From Actinomycetes bacterium (GTDB lineage: Bacteria; Actinomycetota; Thermoleophilia; Solirubrobacterales; Solirubrobacteraceae), in the NCBI GenBank assembly GCA_021846845.1, contig JAJZWB010000017.1, positions 1-39,220 of the forward strand: a stretch of DNA of 39,220 nucleotides, read 5' to 3'. The translations under genes and the position numbers were made by a program. The notes beneath the pieces are model-generated. The model was not told the origin of the DNA, did not search any database, and was given only the letters and a program-made list of their open reading frames with translations. This document shows positions 4,058 to 19,735 of the stretch, piece by piece (the first letter of the stretch is position 1; every line of letters starts with the position of its first letter).

Positions 4058-4093
4058 TTGACAACGCGATCGATCGGTACGAACATGTGTTCG
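4058..4093 (+). promoter_or_regulatory. imuB promoter with LexA (SOS) box
   Basis: A consensus -35 TTGACA (4058-4063) is followed 17 bp later by gaacat (4081-4086) as a -10. The near-perfect palindrome cgaacatgtgttcg (4080-4093) fits the Gram-positive/actinobacterial LexA box (CGAAC-N4-GTTCG) and covers the -10 and the putative start codon, so repressor binding would block initiation. The predicted transcript start falls at or beside the GTG codons at 4087/4093, so the mRNA is probably leaderless. The same 14 bases recur before dnaE2. Confidence 0.88.
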
Positions 4094-5319
4094 TGATCGT
4101 CTGCGTCCTGATCCCCCGCCTCTCGCTCACCACCGCCGCCGGCGACCGCGAGGAGCTGCTGTCGCTTCCGGTCGCCCTGGCGCCCGAGCCGGGCGAGGCG
4201 CAGAGGGTCGGAGAGGTCTCGCCGGCGGCCGAGGCGTTCGGGATCCACCCCGGGATGCGCCTTGGCGAGGCGCTGGCGCGGTGCCCGCGGCTGGCGCTGA
4301 TCCCGCCTGACCCGGCAGGCGTCGACGACCGCTGGGAGCGTCTGCTGGTGCGCCTGGAGTCGATCGGCGCCGCCGTCGAGCCCGAGCGTCCCGGGCTGGC
4401 GTGCTTCGATGCGCGCGGACTGGTGCGTCTGCACGATGGAGTGGGTGGCGTGCTGGGGGCGGCGCGCGGGGCGCTTGGCGCCCCGGCGCGCTTCGGGGTC
4501 GCGCCGTCCCGCTTCTGCGCGATCGCCGCGGCGACCAGGGCCAGGGTGCGCCGCCCGGAGGTCGTCGCTCCGGACCGATCCGGGACCGCCCGAGTCCGAG
4601 CTCGCGACGGCCGGGCGCTGGCGCGTGCCTACCTGGCACCGCTTCCCGTCTCCCTGCTGCGCGCGCGCCGGGATCTCGCCGACATGCCGGAGACGCTCGA
4701 GCGGCTCGGGATCGGGACGCTCGGCCAGCTTGCGTCGCTGCCCGCTGGGACGCTGGCGGATCGCTTCGGCAGGCGTGGGCTGATCGCCCATGAGCTCGCC
4801 CGGGGTGGCGACACCGATCTGCGGCCGCGGCCGGCGAGCGAGTTCCTGCGCGAGTCGCTGGAGCTGCCCGAGGCCTCCTCAGGGCTCCAGCTGGAGCGCG
4901 GTCTCGGATTGCTGATCGATCGTCTGCTGGCTCGGCGCGAGCGGCGCGGCCGGACGCTGCGGGCGGTGGTGATCGCCGCCACGCTGGTGCAGCGGGGCGG
5001 CACCTGGCGCCGTCGGGTCGTGTTCCGTGAGGCGCTCTCCGACCCCGTGCGGATGCGCCTCGCGCTCACGCCGAGCCTGGCGCTGATGCCCGCGCCGGCG
5101 GAGCGGCTGCAGCTGGCGGTGGAGCGCTTCGGACCGCCTTCATCCGAGCAGCGGACGTTGCTGGAGGATCCCGCGGCCGCCCGCCTCGCGAGGCTGCGCG
5201 AGGCGGTCGGCCAGGCACGGGTCGCGGCCGGGCCGGAGGCGGCGATGCGGGTCCTGGAGGTCGACCCCGACTCCCGGATCCCGGAGCGCCGTGCGGTGCT
5301 CGCTCCGTTCGAGGGCTGA
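4087..5319 (+). CDS. imuB: ImuB-like inactive Y-family polymerase (mutasome subunit)
   Basis: A Y-family DNA polymerase homologue of 410 residues whose N-terminus VIVCVLIPRLSLTTA aligns with the ImuB class, where the catalytic Asp/Phe motif (DxDxFFASVE) of active DinB enzymes is lost. The palm acidic region is also degenerate (LACFDARGLVRLHDG). A helix-hairpin-helix-like segment follows (ETLERLGIGTLGQLASLPAGTLADRFG, about 202-228; quoted in part: LGIGTLGQLASLP), then a little-finger domain. ImuB is known to bridge DnaE2 to the sliding clamp in SOS mutagenesis. The start is GTG 4087, or GTG 4093, which would fit leaderless transcription better; both lie inside the LexA box. No imuA lies upstream (a divergent ZIP gene does). 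DUF6504 and its repeats follow. Confidence 0.9.
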   Translation: MFVIVCVLIPRLSLTTAAGDREELLSLPVALAPEPGEAQRVGEVSPAAEAFGIHPGMRLGEALARCPRLALIPPDPAGVDDRWERLLVRLESIGAAVEPERPGLACFDARGLVRLHDGVGGVLGAARGALGAPARFGVAPSRFCAIAAATRARVRRPEVVAPDRSGTARVRARDGRALARAYLAPLPVSLLRARRDLADMPETLERLGIGTLGQLASLPAGTLADRFGRRGLIAHELARGGDTDLRPRPASEFLRESLELPEASSGLQLERGLGLLIDRLLARRERRGRTLRAVVIAATLVQRGGTWRRRVVFREALSDPVRMRLALTPSLALMPAPAERLQLAVERFGPPSSEQRTLLEDPAAARLARLREAVGQARVAAGPEAAMRVLEVDPDSRIPERRAVLAPFEG

Positions 5320-5328
5320 TCACGCGAG

Positions 5329-5469
5329 ATGCGTGCACGCCTGTGCCGGGCTGGCGTGATCCATCGGCCGAGCGGGTCGCGGTTTGCGCGGATGATCGGA
5401 CCGCGGCGCCTGCCGGTTGCGGGGGGCATCGGACCGCGGCTCCCGGCGGTTGCGGGGGTCCGGCGATGA
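5329..5469 (+). other. 46-codon ORF between imuB and the DUF6504 repeats
   Basis: ATG at 5329, nine bases after the imuB stop, opens a stop-free frame that ends in the TGA of ATGA at 5466-5469. Its second half encodes two diverged copies of the repeat peptide (MIGPRRLPVAGG from an internal ATG at 5392, then IGPRLPAVAGVRR). No strong SD is visible. It is listed as the first link of the overlapping ORF chain; whether it is translated is unknown. Confidence 0.35.
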
Positions 5470-5577
5470 CCGGACCGCGGCGCCTGGGGGTTGCGGGGGT
5501 CCGGCGATGACCGGACCGCGGCGCCTGGGGGTTGCGGAGGTCCGGCGATGACCGGACCGCGGCGCCTGGGGGTTGCG
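5397..5577. repeat. Minisatellite of five units, mostly 41 bp, at the DUF6504 start
   Basis: The core cggaccgcgg starts at 5397, 5430, 5471, 5512 and 5553 (periods 33, 41, 41, 41). Each 41-bp unit carries a G-rich SD-like stretch, an ATG and the first codons of DUF6504 (MTGPRRLG); the last unit is the real gene start. Copies 3 and 4 are almost identical, so duplication looks recent. Only the unit directly before the gene has GGAGG; the others have GGGGG. Confidence 0.93.
5466..5551 (+). other. Two overlapping 14-codon mini-ORFs
   Basis: ATG 5466 encodes MTGPRRLGVAGVRR and stops at 5510. ATG 5507 encodes MTGPRRLGVAEVRR and stops at 5551. Each TGA is part of an ATGA that also holds the next ATG, so the two mini-ORFs lead by 4-nt overlaps into the DUF6504 start at 5548. 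Because the 41-bp period equals 3n+2, every complete unit reproduces this arrangement. Confidence 0.5.
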
Positions 5578-5790
5578 CGGCGGGTGGCGGTCGGTGCCGG
5601 CGCCGATGGCAGGCCGCTGGTGGTGGACGGGCTTCAGGTGGACGCGGTCCGCGAATCGTGGCTGGTCGAGGATCGCTGGTGGACCGAGCGGCCGTTGCGC
5701 CGCCGCTACTGGGAGGTGGTGACCGTCTGCGGTCGCGACGAGGTCGTGTTCCACGACCTGATCGGCGGCGGCTGGTGGCGCCACCGGTGA
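5548..5790 (+). CDS. DUF6504 family small protein
   Basis: An 80-residue soluble protein with a Trp/Arg-rich core (VRESWLVEDRWWTERPLRRR, then VVFHDLIGGGWWRHR). This matches the small DUF6504-type proteins that I know as neighbours of Y-family polymerase/ImuB genes in actinomycetes; the molecular role is not established. The start at ATG 5548 is supported by GGAGG at 5536-5540 (7 nt spacing); upstream in-frame TTG 5491 lies inside the repeat. Position after imuB suggests a link with SOS translesion synthesis (inference). Both ends of the gene have been copied into tandem repeats, and its TGA overlaps a GTG (GTGA, 5787-5790). Confidence 0.8.
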   Translation: MTGPRRLGVARRVAVGAGADGRPLVVDGLQVDAVRESWLVEDRWWTERPLRRRYWEVVTVCGRDEVVFHDLIGGGWWRHR

Positions 5791-5995
5791 TGACCGAACG
5801 CAGGGAGGGCCGACGACCGTGACGGCGGACCACCGGTGACGGCGGACCACCGGTGACGGCGGACCACCGGTGACGGCGGACCACCGGTGACGGCGGACCA
5901 CCGGTGACGGCGGACCACCGGTGACGGCCGGCGCCCGGGACGGCCGACCGATGCCGGCGCCTGCCACCACGAACGGGCCGGCGCAGGCGACGTAG
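5787..5995 (+). other. Chain of eight overlapping mini-ORFs after DUF6504
   Basis: From the GTGA at the DUF6504 stop: GTG 5787 (inner ATG 5790, MTERREGRRP) ends at 5822. GTG 5819 then starts the first of six identical 6-codon ORFs (MTADHR; starts 5819, 5836, 5853, 5870, 5887, 5904). The last unit (GTG 5921) runs 24 codons to TAG at 5993-5995. Every junction is a 4-nt GTGA overlap. The final TAG lies in the proposed -10 of the next gene. Translation is unproven. Confidence 0.45.
5819..5931. repeat. 17-bp tandem repeat, about 6.6 copies
   Basis: The unit gtgacggcggaccaccg starts at 5819, 5836, 5853, 5870, 5887, 5904 and (partial) 5921 without mismatches in the full copies. The segment ccaccggtga also ends the DUF6504 gene (5781-5790), so the unit probably arose from that 3' end. 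There are no spacers, so it is not a CRISPR. Confidence 0.95.
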
Positions 5996-5998
5996 ACT
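5993..5998 (+). promoter_or_regulatory. -10 box of the aldo/keto reductase gene (leaderless type)
   Basis: TAGACT ends 7 nt before ATG 6006. No SD precedes the ATG, which fits transcription starting at or next to the start codon. No good -35 is visible. Confidence 0.55.
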
Positions 5999-6005
5999 CA
6001 CGCGC

Positions 6006-7160
6006 ATGAAAGCCGACGGCTCCGCTCGGACTCCCGGCCCTGTGGCCGTCGGCACCTGGAGCGGCGGGCGGTTCATGCGCTTCGGCGAGCCGATCGATGA
6101 CGAGCGCTTCATCGGGCTGGTCGCCCCCGGCGGCGGGATCGACACGGTGATCACCGCGGATGTGTACGGGACCGGCGACGCCGACGCGATGCTCGGCCGG
6201 GCGCTGGCCGGGGTGCCCCGTGCTTCGGTCTGCGTCGTGGGCGCCGTCGGCCACGACTTCTACGCGGGCGAGCGCAACGGCGCCAAGGGCTTCCCTCGGT
6301 TCACCGACCCCGCGCTCAGAGGTCCGGCCGACTATGCCGGCTACCTGCGGATGGCGACGGAGCGGAGCCTGGAGCGATGCGGGATCGACAGCTTCGATCT
6401 GCTGCTGCTTCACAACCCCGATCGGACCGGCTACACGAGCGAGGTGGTCTGGGAAGGGATGGCGGCGCTGCGGGACGCCGGCCTCACCCACGCGATCGGC
6501 GTCGCTCCCGGCCCGGCCAACGGCTTCACGCTCGACGTGATCGACTGCCTTGAGAGGTTCGGGGAGCTGATCGACTGGGCGATGGTGATCCTGAATCCGC
6601 TGGAGCCCTGGCCCGGGGAGCTGTGCCTCGATGCCGCCGCCGTGGCCGGCGTGCGGGTGATCACGCGCGTCGTCGACCACGGCGGCCTGTTCTGGGACGA
6701 CCTGCGGCCCGGCAGCGAGCTCGTGCCAGGCGATCACCGCAGCTTCAGGCCCGCGGGCTGGATCGAGGCCGGGCTGGAGCGGATCGAGCCGATGCGGACG
6801 ATCGCGCGGCGCGCGGGGCTGACGCCGATCCAGCTCGCGTGCCAGTGGAACCTCGCCCACCCTGCGGTTGCGTGCGCGGCTCCGACCCTCATCCAGGAGG
6901 TCGGCCGGGGTGTGCGTTCGATCGAGGACAAGCGCGCCGAGCTGGCGGCGCTCCCGGCCGAGATCCGCCTCTCCGACGAGGACGTGGACGAGATCAGGCG
7001 GCTGGGCGACAACACCGGCTGCATGGCGCTCAAGGGCGCGTCACCGGCGCACGAGGGCGAGGATCTGCCCGACCGCTGGGTGCTCGACGAGCGGCTGGTG
7101 GAGGTCGCGGCACGCTGGCGGATCGATCCTGAGCGAGATCTGACGATGGTCGGCACATGA
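6006..7160 (+). CDS. Aldo/keto reductase family protein
   Basis: A 384-residue TIM-barrel protein of the AKR superfamily. The Asp/Tyr pair is in ITADVYGTGDADAMLGRAL (about 45-63) and the substrate-pocket His in LLLLHNPDRTGYTSE (about 136-150). The cofactor end NTGCMALKG is diverged. At the position of the catalytic Lys (usually ATK) the sequence reads CVVGAVGHDFY, so the Lys appears to be missing and normal hydride-transfer chemistry is doubtful. Residues 200-215 (ILNPLEPWPGELCLD) and the Trp-rich C-terminus are typical of a large-loop AKR subgroup. It overlaps the next gene by 4 nt (ATGA), so the two are probably translationally coupled. The substrate is unknown. Confidence 0.85.
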   Translation: MKADGSARTPGPVAVGTWSGGRFMRFGEPIDDERFIGLVAPGGGIDTVITADVYGTGDADAMLGRALAGVPRASVCVVGAVGHDFYAGERNGAKGFPRFTDPALRGPADYAGYLRMATERSLERCGIDSFDLLLLHNPDRTGYTSEVVWEGMAALRDAGLTHAIGVAPGPANGFTLDVIDCLERFGELIDWAMVILNPLEPWPGELCLDAAAVAGVRVITRVVDHGGLFWDDLRPGSELVPGDHRSFRPAGWIEAGLERIEPMRTIARRAGLTPIQLACQWNLAHPAVACAAPTLIQEVGRGVRSIEDKRAELAALPAEIRLSDEDVDEIRRLGDNTGCMALKGASPAHEGEDLPDRWVLDERLVEVAARWRIDPERDLTMVGT

Positions 7161-9735: not shown

Positions 9736-9962
9736 GGAACCCGGCGACTGCGGCGGGGTAGGGCGGCCGCCGGCCGGCGCAGGTCAGGGTTGGCTGGTTG
9801 GAGGCGACAGGCCACAGGCGCGAGCAGGCCGATCCCCACGGCTCGCACAGGAGGCGCGTGATCTCGTCGCGGTCGCCGGGTCCGGCGCTGCGGATCTCGA
9901 TCGCCGCCGCCCGCCCGGGATCTCACCAGGCTCAGGCGACTGGCGGCCGACCTGGCCAAGTG
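9736..9962. other. Intergenic region without visible gene
   Basis: This stretch separates the divergent MFS and dnaE2 promoters. An open frame continues upstream of dnaE2 to 9798, but its sequence is unlike DnaE and precedes the SOS box. I see nothing else in it. Confidence 0.4.
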
Positions 9963-9976
9963 CGAACATGTGTTCG
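9963..9976 (+). promoter_or_regulatory. LexA (SOS) box of dnaE2
   Basis: cgaacatgtgttcg, identical in all 14 bases to the imuB box, ends 1 nt before ATG 9978. gaacat inside it would serve as the -10, predicting a leaderless transcript; the -35 region is poor. Identity of the two boxes makes joint LexA control very likely. Confidence 0.9.
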
Positions 9977-9977
9977 G

Positions 9978-12900
9978 ATGTACGTGGAGCTGCACTGCCA
10001 CTCGGCCTTCTCGTTCCTGGACGGCGCCTCGCTCCCGGACGAGTTGGTTGCGGCAGCGCTGGCGCTCGGACACGGCACGCTCGCGCTGACCGACCACAAC
10101 TCGGTCAGCGGCTCGATGGAGTTCGCGGTCGCCGCCCGCTCGCTCGGCCTGCGGGCGATCCACGGCGCCGAGATCGATCTCGACGAGCCGGATGAGGGGC
10201 CCGCGACCCGCCGCAGGGGCGGGCGCCGCCACCTGACTCTGCTCGTGCGCGACGGTCGCGGCTGGTCGAACCTCTGCCGCATCCTCACGCGGGCGCACGC
10301 GCGCACGCGTGATGTGCGGCCGAACGGCCCGCCGGCCGGACGACTCGAGCGTGACCGGGAAGAGCGAGGCCGGACGCCAAGCAGGTCGCAAGCTCGAGAA
10401 CCGTGCGTCCCGCTCGAGACCGTGCTGGAGCACGCCGAGGGCCTGGTCTGCCTGAGCGGCTGCGCGCTGCACGGCGTGCACGACGCGCCGACGCTTGGAA
10501 GGCTGCTTGAGGCTTTCGGCCGCCAGCGCCTGCGGATAGAGCTCCAGCGCCCCTACCTGCAGGACGACCGTGCCCGCAACCGGCGGCTGGCGCAGCTCGC
10601 CCGCCGGCTGGGGCTCGCGTGCGTGGCGACCGGCGACGTCCACGCCCACGCCCGGCGCCGGGCCCCGCTCCAGGACGCGCTCGTCGCGATCGGACTGCAT
10701 GCGACGCTTGACTCCTCAGAGCCCCAGCGGCGCGGCAACTTCAGCCACGTGCTCTGCTCGCCGCAGGCGATGGCGGCGCGCTTCGCCGAACACCCCGAGG
10801 CGGTGGCCGAGACCGCCCGGCTGGCCGACGAGCTGCGCTTCGACCTGACCAGCGACCTCGGCTACCGCTATCCGGGCTCGGAGGACGAGCAGGCCACGGT
10901 CCGCCTGGCGGCGCTGTGCCGCGCGCGGCTGGAGGACCGCTACTCGGGCTCGCCGGCCGCGGTCCGCGAGCAGGCGCGATCGCGCCTGGAGCAGGAGCTG
11001 CGGATCATCGACGCGCTCGGTCTGGCCGGCTTCTTCCTGCTGCACCACGACATGCTTGAGCTGGCGCGTGAGGTCGCACTGGAGGTGCGCGGCGCCGACA
11101 GTGCCCGGGCGCTGCTGCCGCCGGGCCGCGGGCGTGGTTCGAGCGTCTCCTCGATCGTCTGCTACCTGACCGGGCTCTCGCATGTCGATCCGATCGCGGC
11201 TGAGCTCGCGATCGGTCGGTTCCTCAACGACGAGCTGACCGCGCTGCCCGACATCGACCTCGACTTCCCGCGTGACATCCGCGAGCGGCTGATCCCCCGC
11301 ATCCACGAGCGCTACGGCCGCGACCGCTCGGCGCTCGTAGCGGCCTTTCCCACCTACCGCGCCCGGGGCGCGATCCGAGAGCTTGGCAAGGCGCTCGGCC
11401 TGCCGCCGGCGGAGATCGAGCGCGTCGCGCGCGGCAGCGAGGGATGGGACGCGCGCGAGGTCGCCCTCGACATCGAGCGCGCATTGCGTCGCAGGCCGGA
11501 GGGGCGATGGGCCTGGCTGGCGCGCCTGGCGGCGGAGGCTCACGGCCTGCCGCGCCACCTCTCGCAGCACTCAGGCGGGATGATCGTCGCCACCCGGCCG
11601 CTGGTCGACTGCTGTCCGATCGTGCCGGCGGCGATGGAGGGCCGTCAGATCTCGCAGTGGGACAAGGATTCGTGCGCGGACGCGGGCTTTCTGAAGATCG
11701 ATCTGCTCGGGCTGGGGATGCTGTCGGCGGTCGAGCGCACGGTGGAGCTGATCGCGGCGACCCGGGGCGAGCGGATCGACCTGTCTCGTATCCCCTACGA
11801 CGATCCCGCCACCTTCCAGTGCATCCAGAGCGCCGACACGACCGGCGTGTTCCAGATCGAGAGCCGGGCGCAGATGCAGTCGCTGCGCCGCACCCGGCCC
11901 GAGAACCTGCGCGACATCACGATCCAGGTCGCGATCGTCCGTCCCGGCCCGATCCAGGGCGGGGCGGTAAATCCCTACATCGAGCGCCGCCAGCGGCTGC
12001 GTGCCGACCCGGGCTTCGAGGTCCCATACCTGCATCCGTCGCTGGTCCCGGCGCTGTCGGAGACGCTCGGGACGATCATCTTCCAGGACCAGGTGCTGGA
12101 GGTCGCGATCGCGTTCGCCGGCTTCACCCCCGGGCAGGCCGAGGGGCTGCGCCGGGCGATGAGCCGCAAGCGCTCGCAGGAGGCGATCGAGTCCCACCAC
12201 GAGCGCTTCATCGCCGGCGCGAAGCGCGCTCATGGGGTGGACGATGAGACCGCCGAGCGGGTCTGGGAGATGGTCAAGGGGTTCTCGGGCTTCGGCTTCC
12301 CCAAGGCTCACGGGGCGGCGTTCGGTCTGCTCGCCTACCAGTCGACCTGGCTGCGCGTCCACCACCCGCTCCAGTTCCTGTGCGCGCTGCTCAACGAGCA
12401 GCCGATGGGCTTCTATCCGCCCGACGCGCTCATCCACGAGGCTCAGCGGCGGGGGATCGAGGTGGCCGCGCCGGACGTGAACGACAGCGGGGTGGAGTGC
12501 GAGATCGAGTCAGAGCTCGCCACCTCGCGATCGGGGTCCGCCGGACCGCGCTCGGGCGCCGTCCGCCGGCGCGTCCGGATCGGGCTCGGCTACGTGCGCG
12601 GCGTGCGCGGTGAGGATGCCGCCGCGCTGGTCGCGGCCCGCCGATCCGGCGGTCGCTTCCGCAGCCTGTCGGACCTGGCATCACGGGCCGGCTGCGGCGC
12701 TGCGGCGCTGGAGCTGCTGGCCTGGTCGGGGGCGTGCGACTCCCTGGCGGTCGCGGAGGCCGCCGCGCCCGGGGTCGCCGCGCCCGGGGTCGCCGCGCCC
12801 GTTCTGCGTCCCGGCTTCGCCCGCCGCGTCGCGCTCTGGCAGCTGGGCGTCGTCACCCCCGGCCGCCGCGTCCCCGGCGGCACCCAGCTCGCGCTGGCGC

Positions 12901-13484
12901 TCGATCTACCGGCGCCGCCGTCGCTGCGCCGGCTGTCGGAGTGGGAGGCGATGATCGCCGACTACGGCGCCACCGGGCTGACCACGGGCGCTCATCCGCT
13001 GGCGCTGCTGCGCGAGCGGATCGGGCCCGGAGCGGCCACCAGCCTGGACCTGGAGCGGCTCCCGCACGGCGGGCGGGTGCGGGTGGGAGGCCTGGTTGTC
13101 GCCCGCCAGCGGCCGGGAACCGCCGGAGGGGTGGTGTTCGTCCTGCTTGAGGACGAGCACGGGACGATCAACCTGGTCGTCCCGCCGGCGATCTACGAGC
13201 GCCACAGGCTGACGGTCAGGACCGAGCCGCTGATCGTTGCGGATGGGAGGCTTGAGCGGCTCGCCGCGGGAGGGGGCGCGATCAACGTGCTCGTCAGCAG
13301 GGTCGCGTCGATAGAGCTTCCCGACCGCGTCCTCGCCGAGATCAAGGACTTCTCGCTGCTGGATGAGGGCGTCAGGCGGGAGCTGGGGCGCGGCGGCGCG
13401 GAAGAGCGCGCCGCGGCCGGGGCGCACGGGTTCCGCGCCGTCGCGCCTCCCGCGATGAGCTTCGCCTCCGGTCGCCGGCGATGA
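9978..13484 (+). CDS. dnaE2: Error-prone DNA polymerase III alpha subunit DnaE2 (ImuC)
   Basis: A 1168-residue C-family polymerase of the DnaE2/ImuC class, the catalytic subunit for SOS translesion synthesis. The PHP domain opens the protein (LHCHSAFSFLDG, His 6 and 8; later HGAEI and GDVHAH). The palm carries GRGRGSSVSS and PDIDLDFPRD with catalytic aspartates at about 427/429; the fingers contain FSGFGFPKAHGAAFG, and a C-terminal OB domain (RVRVGGLVVARQRPGTAGGV) is present. It lacks the tau-binding tail of replicative DnaE1. ATG 9978 gives the canonical N-terminus right after the SOS box. A PGVAA repeat is an in-frame 15-bp duplication near 12768-12800. Its 3' end is triplicated downstream. 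Confidence 0.96.
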   Translation: MYVELHCHSAFSFLDGASLPDELVAAALALGHGTLALTDHNSVSGSMEFAVAARSLGLRAIHGAEIDLDEPDEGPATRRRGGRRHLTLLVRDGRGWSNLCRILTRAHARTRDVRPNGPPAGRLERDREERGRTPSRSQAREPCVPLETVLEHAEGLVCLSGCALHGVHDAPTLGRLLEAFGRQRLRIELQRPYLQDDRARNRRLAQLARRLGLACVATGDVHAHARRRAPLQDALVAIGLHATLDSSEPQRRGNFSHVLCSPQAMAARFAEHPEAVAETARLADELRFDLTSDLGYRYPGSEDEQATVRLAALCRARLEDRYSGSPAAVREQARSRLEQELRIIDALGLAGFFLLHHDMLELAREVALEVRGADSARALLPPGRGRGSSVSSIVCYLTGLSHVDPIAAELAIGRFLNDELTALPDIDLDFPRDIRERLIPRIHERYGRDRSALVAAFPTYRARGAIRELGKALGLPPAEIERVARGSEGWDAREVALDIERALRRRPEGRWAWLARLAAEAHGLPRHLSQHSGGMIVATRPLVDCCPIVPAAMEGRQISQWDKDSCADAGFLKIDLLGLGMLSAVERTVELIAATRGERIDLSRIPYDDPATFQCIQSADTTGVFQIESRAQMQSLRRTRPENLRDITIQVAIVRPGPIQGGAVNPYIERRQRLRADPGFEVPYLHPSLVPALSETLGTIIFQDQVLEVAIAFAGFTPGQAEGLRRAMSRKRSQEAIESHHERFIAGAKRAHGVDDETAERVWEMVKGFSGFGFPKAHGAAFGLLAYQSTWLRVHHPLQFLCALLNEQPMGFYPPDALIHEAQRRGIEVAAPDVNDSGVECEIESELATSRSGSAGPRSGAVRRRVRIGLGYVRGVRGEDAAALVAARRSGGRFRSLSDLASRAGCGAAALELLAWSGACDSLAVAEAAAPGVAAPGVAAPVLRPGFARRVALWQLGVVTPGRRVPGGTQLALALDLPAPPSLRRLSEWEAMIADYGATGLTTGAHPLALLRERIGPGAATSLDLERLPHGGRVRVGGLVVARQRPGTAGGVVFVLLEDEHGTINLVVPPAIYERHRLTVRTEPLIVADGRLERLAAGGGAINVLVSRVASIELPDRVLAEIKDFSLLDEGVRRELGRGGAEERAAAGAHGFRAVAPPAMSFASGRRR

Positions 13485-19250: not shown

Positions 19251-19643
19251 TTGCCACACCATCGTGAGTCGATCACCGCGCCACGCGCCCCGGAGGCGAT
19301 CGGTCCCTACGTACATGCGGTCGCCGCCGGCGGCCTTCTTTTCTGCTCCGGGCAGATCCCCCTGGATCCCCGCAGCGGCGAGATCGTCGGCGCGACCGCG
19401 GCCGACCAGGCCGGACGCTGCCTGGAGAACCTAGCGGCGGTCTGCGAGGCCGCCGGCGCGACCCTCGGCGACGCGGTCCGCGTGACGGTCTACCTGACGG
19501 ACATGTCCGCGTTCGCGGCGGTCAACGAGGTGTACGCGTCGTTCTTCGAGCATGATCCTCCGGCGCGGGTGGCGATCGGCGTCGCCTCGCTGCCGCGCGG
19601 CGCCCAGGTCGAGATCGACGCGGTCGTGGCGCTCCCGCGCTGA
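19251..19643 (+). CDS. ridA: RidA family (reactive imine/enamine deaminase)
   Basis: A 130-residue YjgF/YER057c/UK114-family protein that hydrolyses reactive enamine/imine intermediates such as 2-aminoacrylate. Family features: [20 protein letters not shown], then SGQIPLDP, and the C-terminal [20 protein letters not shown] with the substrate-binding Arg. The start is TTG 19251: AGGAGG at 19236-19241 with 9 nt spacing decides it. It is therefore a normal leadered gene in contrast to many neighbours. Its final five codons and stop are repeated four more times just downstream. Confidence 0.9.
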
Positions 19644-19735
19644 CTTGAGGCGCTCACGGGCTGACCTTGAGGCGCTCACGCGCTGACTTGAGGCGCTCAC
19701 GGGCTGACCTTGAGGCGCTCCCGGGCTGACCTCAA
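19628..19735. repeat. Five tandem copies of the ridA 3' end
   Basis: Units of 21-22 bp start at 19628 (coding, includes the TGA), 19649, 19671, 19692 and 19714, of form ggcgctcNcgNgctgacNttga. They alternate two subtypes (cgcgctgacttga and cgggctgaccttga), suggesting a duplicated dimer. They fill most of the gap to the convergent hydrolase gene. Confidence 0.93.

What the first reader, a model, noticed from the sequence alone, without database searches (positions are those of the whole stretch)
5329..5995. Chain of twelve ORFs, each overlapping the next by 4 nt, between imuB and the aldo/keto reductase
Read directly: ORFs start at 5329, 5466, 5507, 5548 (DUF6504), 5787, 5819, 5836, 5853, 5870, 5887, 5904 and 5921. 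Every stop is a TGA inside ATGA or GTGA that also contains the next start; the last ends at TAG 5993-5995. The two repeat periods (41 and 17 bp) are both 3n+2, the value that keeps this coupling in every copy. The peptides are small and basic (MTGPRRLGVAGVRR; MTADHR). Stop-free reading is easy at this GC and repeat copies are not independent, so only about five junctions count as independent evidence. It could still be a translational relay tuning DUF6504 or spacing it from imuB, or a set of expressed micropeptides.
Basis: partly seen in the sequence, partly recalled or inferred. Interest (0 to 1): 0.82.

Follow-up and report, generated by a model that had tools for sequence, protein, structure and literature searches.

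The report
Repeat-built stop–start relay after imuB
Between a DNA-damage gene and its small neighbour, short DNA repeats have copied the neighbour's start signal so that tiny reading frames hand over to one another; repeats at other joined genes in these soil bacteria keep a compatible phase, which suggests ribosomes may be passed along such chains, but nobody has measured this.

Summary
The chain is real: twelve ORFs, eleven links, every link a TGA inside ATGA or GTGA. It is two separate things. (1) Upstream of the small imuB-linked gene (start 5548) is a 41-bp array made by copying that gene's own ribosome-binding and start region. In relatives imuB and this gene usually overlap by 4 nt (33 of 55 loci); here the overlap is lost and a 228-nt spacer has grown. 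(2) The 17-bp array downstream lies before the next gene's own conserved promoter-like motif, so it relays to nothing and is probably an ordinary minisatellite.

The genome is full of tandem repeats with no general phase rule. But where a repeat copies an RTGA quartet at a real gene start or stop, periods are 3n:3n+1:3n+2 = 8:0:10 (10 against 0, p = 0.002, post hoc). Six loci are complete relays (gene A stop, mini-ORFs, gene B start), one at the same imuB junction in another genus (74 bp). The closest known kind is the mycobacterial MIRU; these units are local copies, not a dispersed family. Translation is untested.

The parts
4087..5319 (+). imuB (Y-family polymerase-like, 410 aa); stop TGA in CTGA, not coupled to the chain
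   Evidence: Pfam PF00817, E 8e-10; stop position
5329..5469 (+). first ORF of the chain, starts 9 nt after the imuB stop and runs through two degenerate units to ATGA 5466
5392..5465 (+). two degenerate older units of the 5' array (cores at 5398 and 5431, spacing 33); ATGA 5392 to ATGA 5466 is 74 nt = 3n+2
5466..5506 (+). 41-bp unit, mini-ORF MTGPRRLGVAGVRR ending at TGA 5508-5510
5507..5547 (+). 41-bp unit, mini-ORF MTGPRRLGVAEVRR ending at TGA 5549-5551
5536..5540 (+). GGAGG, Shine-Dalgarno-like, 7 nt before ATG 5548; the two upstream copies have GGGGG
5548..5790 (+). small conserved gene next to imuB (80 aa, remote DUF6504-like); its first 30 nt are the last 41-bp copy's start
   Evidence: 122 of 146 family genomes; conservation
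5787..5822 (+). chain ORF starting on the GTGA that ends the small gene
5808..5928 (+). 17-bp minisatellite, seven copies, mini-ORFs VTADHR; judged incidental
5921..5995 (+). last ORF of the chain, ends in TAG
5993..5998 (+). TAGACT, -10-like motif of the next gene, conserved as TANNNT in 18 of 20 loci
6006..7160 (+). aldo/keto reductase gene, separate transcription unit by motif; ends with a 4-nt overlap (ATGA 7157-7160) on a GFA-family gene
   Evidence: Pfam PF00248 and PF04828

Best explanation
The 5' half is a stop-start junction that grew in place by tandem duplication. The 41-bp unit is the small gene's first 30 nt plus 11 nt that precede its start, copied upstream. Each intact copy begins at ATGA; because the period is 3n+2, the mini-ORF from one copy ends exactly on the TGA of the next, and the last hands over to the real gene at 5548. 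Inferred: ribosomes that start in the array are passed from copy to copy by termination-reinitiation, so the duplications do not block the real gene, whereas a 3n+1 duplication would send ribosomes into the gene out of frame and be removed by selection. Shown by sequence: the origin of the units, the ancestral 4-nt overlap, its loss here together with a strong local Shine-Dalgarno, and the phase skew at RTGA boundaries. Not shown: any translation. The 17-bp array downstream is a separate minisatellite in front of an independent promoter.
For: The unit equals the gene's own start region. 33 of 55 loci have the 4-nt imuB/gene overlap, with weaker Shine-Dalgarno matches than gapped loci, p = 3e-5. 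RTGA duplications at gene boundaries: 8:0:10 for 3n:3n+1:3n+2, binomial p = 0.002; non-RTGA boundaries: starts 25:5:1, stops 7:6:8. Six complete relays, all 3n+2, including the same imuB junction in G024 with 74 bp. Reinitiation needs overlaps or very short gaps, and the last 15 nt of the upstream frame suffice (PMC10666635).
Against: Phase test devised after seeing the data and small; against RTGA arrays away from boundaries (25:3:8) the contrast is not significant, p = 0.21. Two junctions carry 3n units (G074, G082). In the window the chain does not overlap imuB, and 5548 has a good ribosome-binding site of its own, so a relay may be unnecessary. No expression data.
Confidence: 0.5

Rival explanations
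1. Neutral minisatellites. Both arrays arose by slippage in a repeat-prone genome; each had about a one-in-three chance of a 3n+2 period, and the chain is a by-product of high GC, common RTGA and repetition. The real gene is translated from its own GGAGG.
For: 165 arrays in 833 kb; non-coding and edge arrays split 31:18:23 by phase. RTGA link probability 0.28. Arrays of any phase in the same spacers of relatives.
Against: 0 of 18 boundary RTGA arrays are 3n+1; complete relays recur at six junctions including the same one in another genus.
Confidence: 0.38
2. The mini-ORFs encode functional micropeptides, or the array is a regulatory RNA or protein-binding element acting on imuB or the small gene.
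For: The 5' array RNA folds more stably than shuffles, z = -2.9, with GGTCCGG/CCGGACC pairing around each ATGA (seen in the sequence).
Against: Repeated sequence gives such folds by itself; no Rfam family; the 3' array is weaker, z = -1.6; units and peptides are not conserved between relatives.
Confidence: 0.06
3. Assembly artefact: collapsed or expanded repeats in a short-read MAG.
For: The genome is in 219 contigs, and other contigs end inside an 18-bp array (L003 and L004).
Against: Units differ from one another in ways misassembly would not make (GGGGG, GGAGG, two degenerate units), and a complete relay occurs in the one-contig genome G079.
Confidence: 0.03

Closest known systems
Mycobacterial interspersed repetitive units (MIRUs; Supply et al. 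1997, as described in the review PMC12548453)
   Same: Tandem repeat units between genes of an operon, each holding a short ORF coupled at -4 nt to the gene at the site, thought to soften the effect on that gene. The senX3-regX3 units of 77 and 53 bp (PMC4213456) are both 3n+2 by my arithmetic.
   Different: MIRUs are a dispersed, apparently mobile family. Here each unit is a copy of the local gene's own start or stop region and has no copies elsewhere.
Termination-reinitiation at -4 nt gene overlaps (Huber et al., PMC10666635)
   Same: The link at each step is the ATGA or GTGA quartet that defines this kind of coupling; the ancestral imuB junction is one.
   Different: Studied pairs are single steps between real genes; here several mini-ORFs lie in series.
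Bicistronic design (leader ORF delivering ribosomes to a coupled gene; mentioned in PMC12548453)
   Same: A short ORF of no coding value precedes the gene with overlapping stop and start.
   Different: Synthetic and single-step; here natural, repeated and made by duplication.
rnc-fpg variable tandem repeats of Mycobacterium tuberculosis (PMC2734929)
   Same: A spacer of a few bp in other species expanded by direct repeats that end at the start codon of a DNA-repair gene.
   Different: In the passages read, repeat phase and mini-ORFs are not discussed.

Membership tests
MIRU | unit holds a short ORF that overlaps its neighbours by 4 nt (RTGA) | tested here: met
   three ATGA links in the 5' array
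MIRU | tandem units between co-directional genes of an operon | tested here: met
   between imuB and the small gene; co-transcription not tested
MIRU | dispersed repeat family with related copies at many sites in the genome | tested here: not met
   no real second copy of the array in the own genome; other matches are short and marginal, E 2e-5 or worse; unit is the local gene's own start
-4 nt coupled gene pair (imuB and small gene) | stop and start overlap in RTGA | tested here: not met
   met in 33 of 55 loci, not in the window, where the gap is 228 nt
-4 nt coupled gene pair (imuB and small gene) | translation of the second gene depends on the first | not testable with these tools
   needs reporters
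DUF6504 (PF20114) | match over the Pfam gathering score | tested here: not met
DUF6504 (PF20114) | remote profile similarity and neighbourhood of dnaE2 | tested here: inconclusive
   hhalign probability 59%, E 9e-5; 5 of 12 PF20114 loci have a DnaE2-like neighbour

The most novel reading that the evidence does not exclude
In-place tandem duplication of stop-start quartets is a recurrent route by which these bacteria lengthen coupled gene junctions, and selection keeps only coupling-safe phases (3n+2 relays or 3n fusions), producing natural multi-step ribosome relays through mini-ORFs with no function of their own.
Probability: 0.45. Interest if true: 0.7.

Novelty: new variant of a known kind. 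Interest (0 to 1): 0.55.

Why it matters
If the phase rule holds in a larger sample, tandem duplications at overlapping genes become a natural record of translational coupling: a missing 3n+1 class would show from sequence alone that coupling at these junctions matters for fitness. It would explain how spacers can grow inside coupled operons, and would suggest why MIRU units have the lengths they have. It also offers natural multi-step versions of the synthetic leader-ORF design, useful for asking how many reinitiation steps a ribosome can make.

Tried and rejected
Relay into the aldo/keto reductase: rejected, it has its own conserved -10-like motif. Dispersed repeat family: rejected, no copies elsewhere. 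Rfam element, sigma-70 promoter or terminator in the region: none found. A genome-wide 3n+2 rule for non-coding arrays: rejected, 31:18:23. A strict 3n+2 rule at the imuB junction: rejected, G074 has 18 bp. Viral contigs as a further sample: one scan found no relative and one found six short loci, not used. PF20114 as the identity of the gene: model not met.

Full report
Check of the observation. The first ORF is not linked to imuB, whose stop (5317-5319) is in CTGA. The 5' array is longer than described: unit cores lie at 5398, 5431, 5472, 5513 and 5554, with spacings 33, 41, 41, 41. The two oldest units are degenerate and the second has lost its ATG, yet the path from ATGA 5392 to ATGA 5466 is still open and is 74 nt, 3n+2. 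A start codon in this 72% GC genome leads to an RTGA link with probability 0.28. The chain is the longest in 833 kb, mostly because repetition multiplies two links.

What the 5' array is. The 41-bp unit consists of the first 30 nt of the real gene (ATGACCGGACCGCGGCGCCTGGGGGTTGCG) plus 11 nt that precede its start. It is an in-place duplication of the gene's start region. The real gene is the last copy: 80 aa, present in 122 of 146 genomes of the family and strongly conserved around WLVEDRWW and RRRYWE. Of the 41-bp copies, only the start at 5548 has GGAGG, 7 nt ahead of ATG; the other two have GGGGG. The name DUF6504 fails the Pfam model. A profile comparison with twelve PF20114 members gives probability 59%, E 9e-5, and five of those twelve loci have a DnaE2-like neighbour, so a remote relationship is plausible but not established.

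Ancestral state. The closest named relatives are Solirubrobacterales MAGs. In relatives imuB and the small gene usually overlap by 4 nt: 33 of the 55 loci in which both ends could be read. Overlapping loci have weak Shine-Dalgarno matches (median -1.7 kcal/mol), gapped ones stronger (median -6.4; p = 3e-5, relatives not independent). The reading is that the gene is normally translated by coupling to imuB, and that in the window the overlap is gone and a local ribosome-binding site has taken over.

The 3' array. In relatives the spacer after the small gene carries unrelated arrays of 18/23, 22, 28 and 50 bp, so its period is not kept. The next gene (aldo/keto reductase) has a TANNNT motif 13-20 nt before its start in 18 of 20 loci, against 14% of crudely predicted gene starts in the genome (binomial p = 5e-14, relatives not independent). 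The TAG that ends the chain is part of this motif in the window (TAGACT, 5993-5998). The 17-bp mini-ORFs therefore precede an independent promoter and feed no gene.

Background of repeats. The genome is rich in tandem arrays: 165 in 833 kb. Coding arrays are 3n in 86 of 93 cases; the other 72 split 31:18:23 for 3n:3n+1:3n+2. Taken alone, a 3n+2 period means little.

A sharper test. If coupling matters, only duplications that copy an RTGA quartet at a real gene boundary should be filtered by phase: 3n+2 gives a relay, 3n an in-frame extension, 3n+1 sends reinitiating ribosomes into the next gene out of frame. I searched 1.09 Mb of the own genome, 0.4 Mb each of two one-contig congeners, and the relatives' loci. 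RTGA at gene starts gave 4:0:8 and at gene stops 2:0:7; controls were starts not followed by A, 25:5:1, and stops not in RTGA, 7:6:8. After merging and adding later loci, 18 boundary loci give 8:0:10; 10 against 0 has p = 0.002. One of the ten (L143) has a doubtful gene start. RTGA arrays away from boundaries give 25:3:8, so the direct contrast with them is not significant (p = 0.21), and the test was devised after seeing the data. It is suggestive, not proven.

Complete relays. Six junctions show the full design, gene A stop, mini-ORF or mini-ORFs, gene B start, all 3n+2: a pair that reads as hutU-hutI with 41 bp twice (L117), a pair that reads as V-ATPase subunits K and F with 47 bp twice (L129), an ABC ATPase and permease pair with 32 bp twice (L186, genome G079); the reductase-GFA junction with 53 bp in G069 and 35 bp in G072; and the imuB-small gene junction itself with 74 bp in G024, a different genus. 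Gene names in L117, L129 and L186 come from reading the protein sequences, not from a family search. Two junctions have an in-frame 18-bp unit: G074 at imuB and G082 at the hutU-hutI pair.

Mechanism. Work on native gene pairs shows that reinitiation is nearly abolished by gaps of 20-38 nt, and that the last 15 nt of the upstream frame suffice (PMC10666635). A spacer that grows at a coupled junction should therefore break coupling unless it carries mini-ORFs that start and stop on the same quartet. This makes the relay physically reasonable. In the window its use is less certain, because imuB ends 9 nt before the first start and the real gene has a good site of its own.

Known kind. [quoted passage not shown] The senX3-regX3 units are 77 and 53 bp (PMC4213456), both 3n+2 by my arithmetic. 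The present arrays work like MIRUs but are not members: they are local copies and are not dispersed. Hence: new variant of a known kind.

Limits. Home-made gene caller; loci chosen partly around imuB; relatives share descent; MAG assembly; no expression data. The out-of-sample test was cut short by data limits.

Noticed in passing
window 5993-5998; same place in L006-L034 and L072: A TANNNT motif (mostly TAAACT, TACACT or TAACAT) 13-20 nt before the aldo/keto reductase start in 18 of 20 loci; the short distance suggests a near-leaderless transcript.
   Followed up: yes
L117 17331-17413, minus strand: Relay of two 41-bp units at a junction that reads as hutU-hutI; same period as the window but unrelated sequence.
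   Followed up: partly
L129 374-468, minus strand: Relay of two 47-bp units at a junction that reads as V-ATPase subunits K and F.
   Followed up: partly
L186 9822-9886, minus strand: Relay of two 32-bp units between an ABC ATPase and its permease in the one-contig genome G079.
   Followed up: partly
window 7157-7160; L006 2915-2968; L009 2955-2990: The reductase and GFA genes overlap by 4 nt in the window; in two relatives this junction is expanded by 53 and 35 bp, each with one mini-ORF.
   Followed up: yes
window 19628-19732: Array of 22/43 bp at the end of a gene, 3n+1, with a stop that is not in RTGA.
   Followed up: no
G000, 833 kb sampled: About one tandem array per 5 kb; coding arrays are almost all 3n.
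   Followed up: partly
window 5534-5560: GGTCCGG-CGATGA-CCGGACC: each start codon of the 41-bp array sits in the loop of a possible 7-bp hairpin that overlaps the Shine-Dalgarno; this inverted repeat might help the array slip or hide the start.
   Followed up: no
window 9798-13484: A dnaE2-type polymerase gene lies about 4.5 kb downstream of imuB, with unrelated genes between.
   Followed up: no
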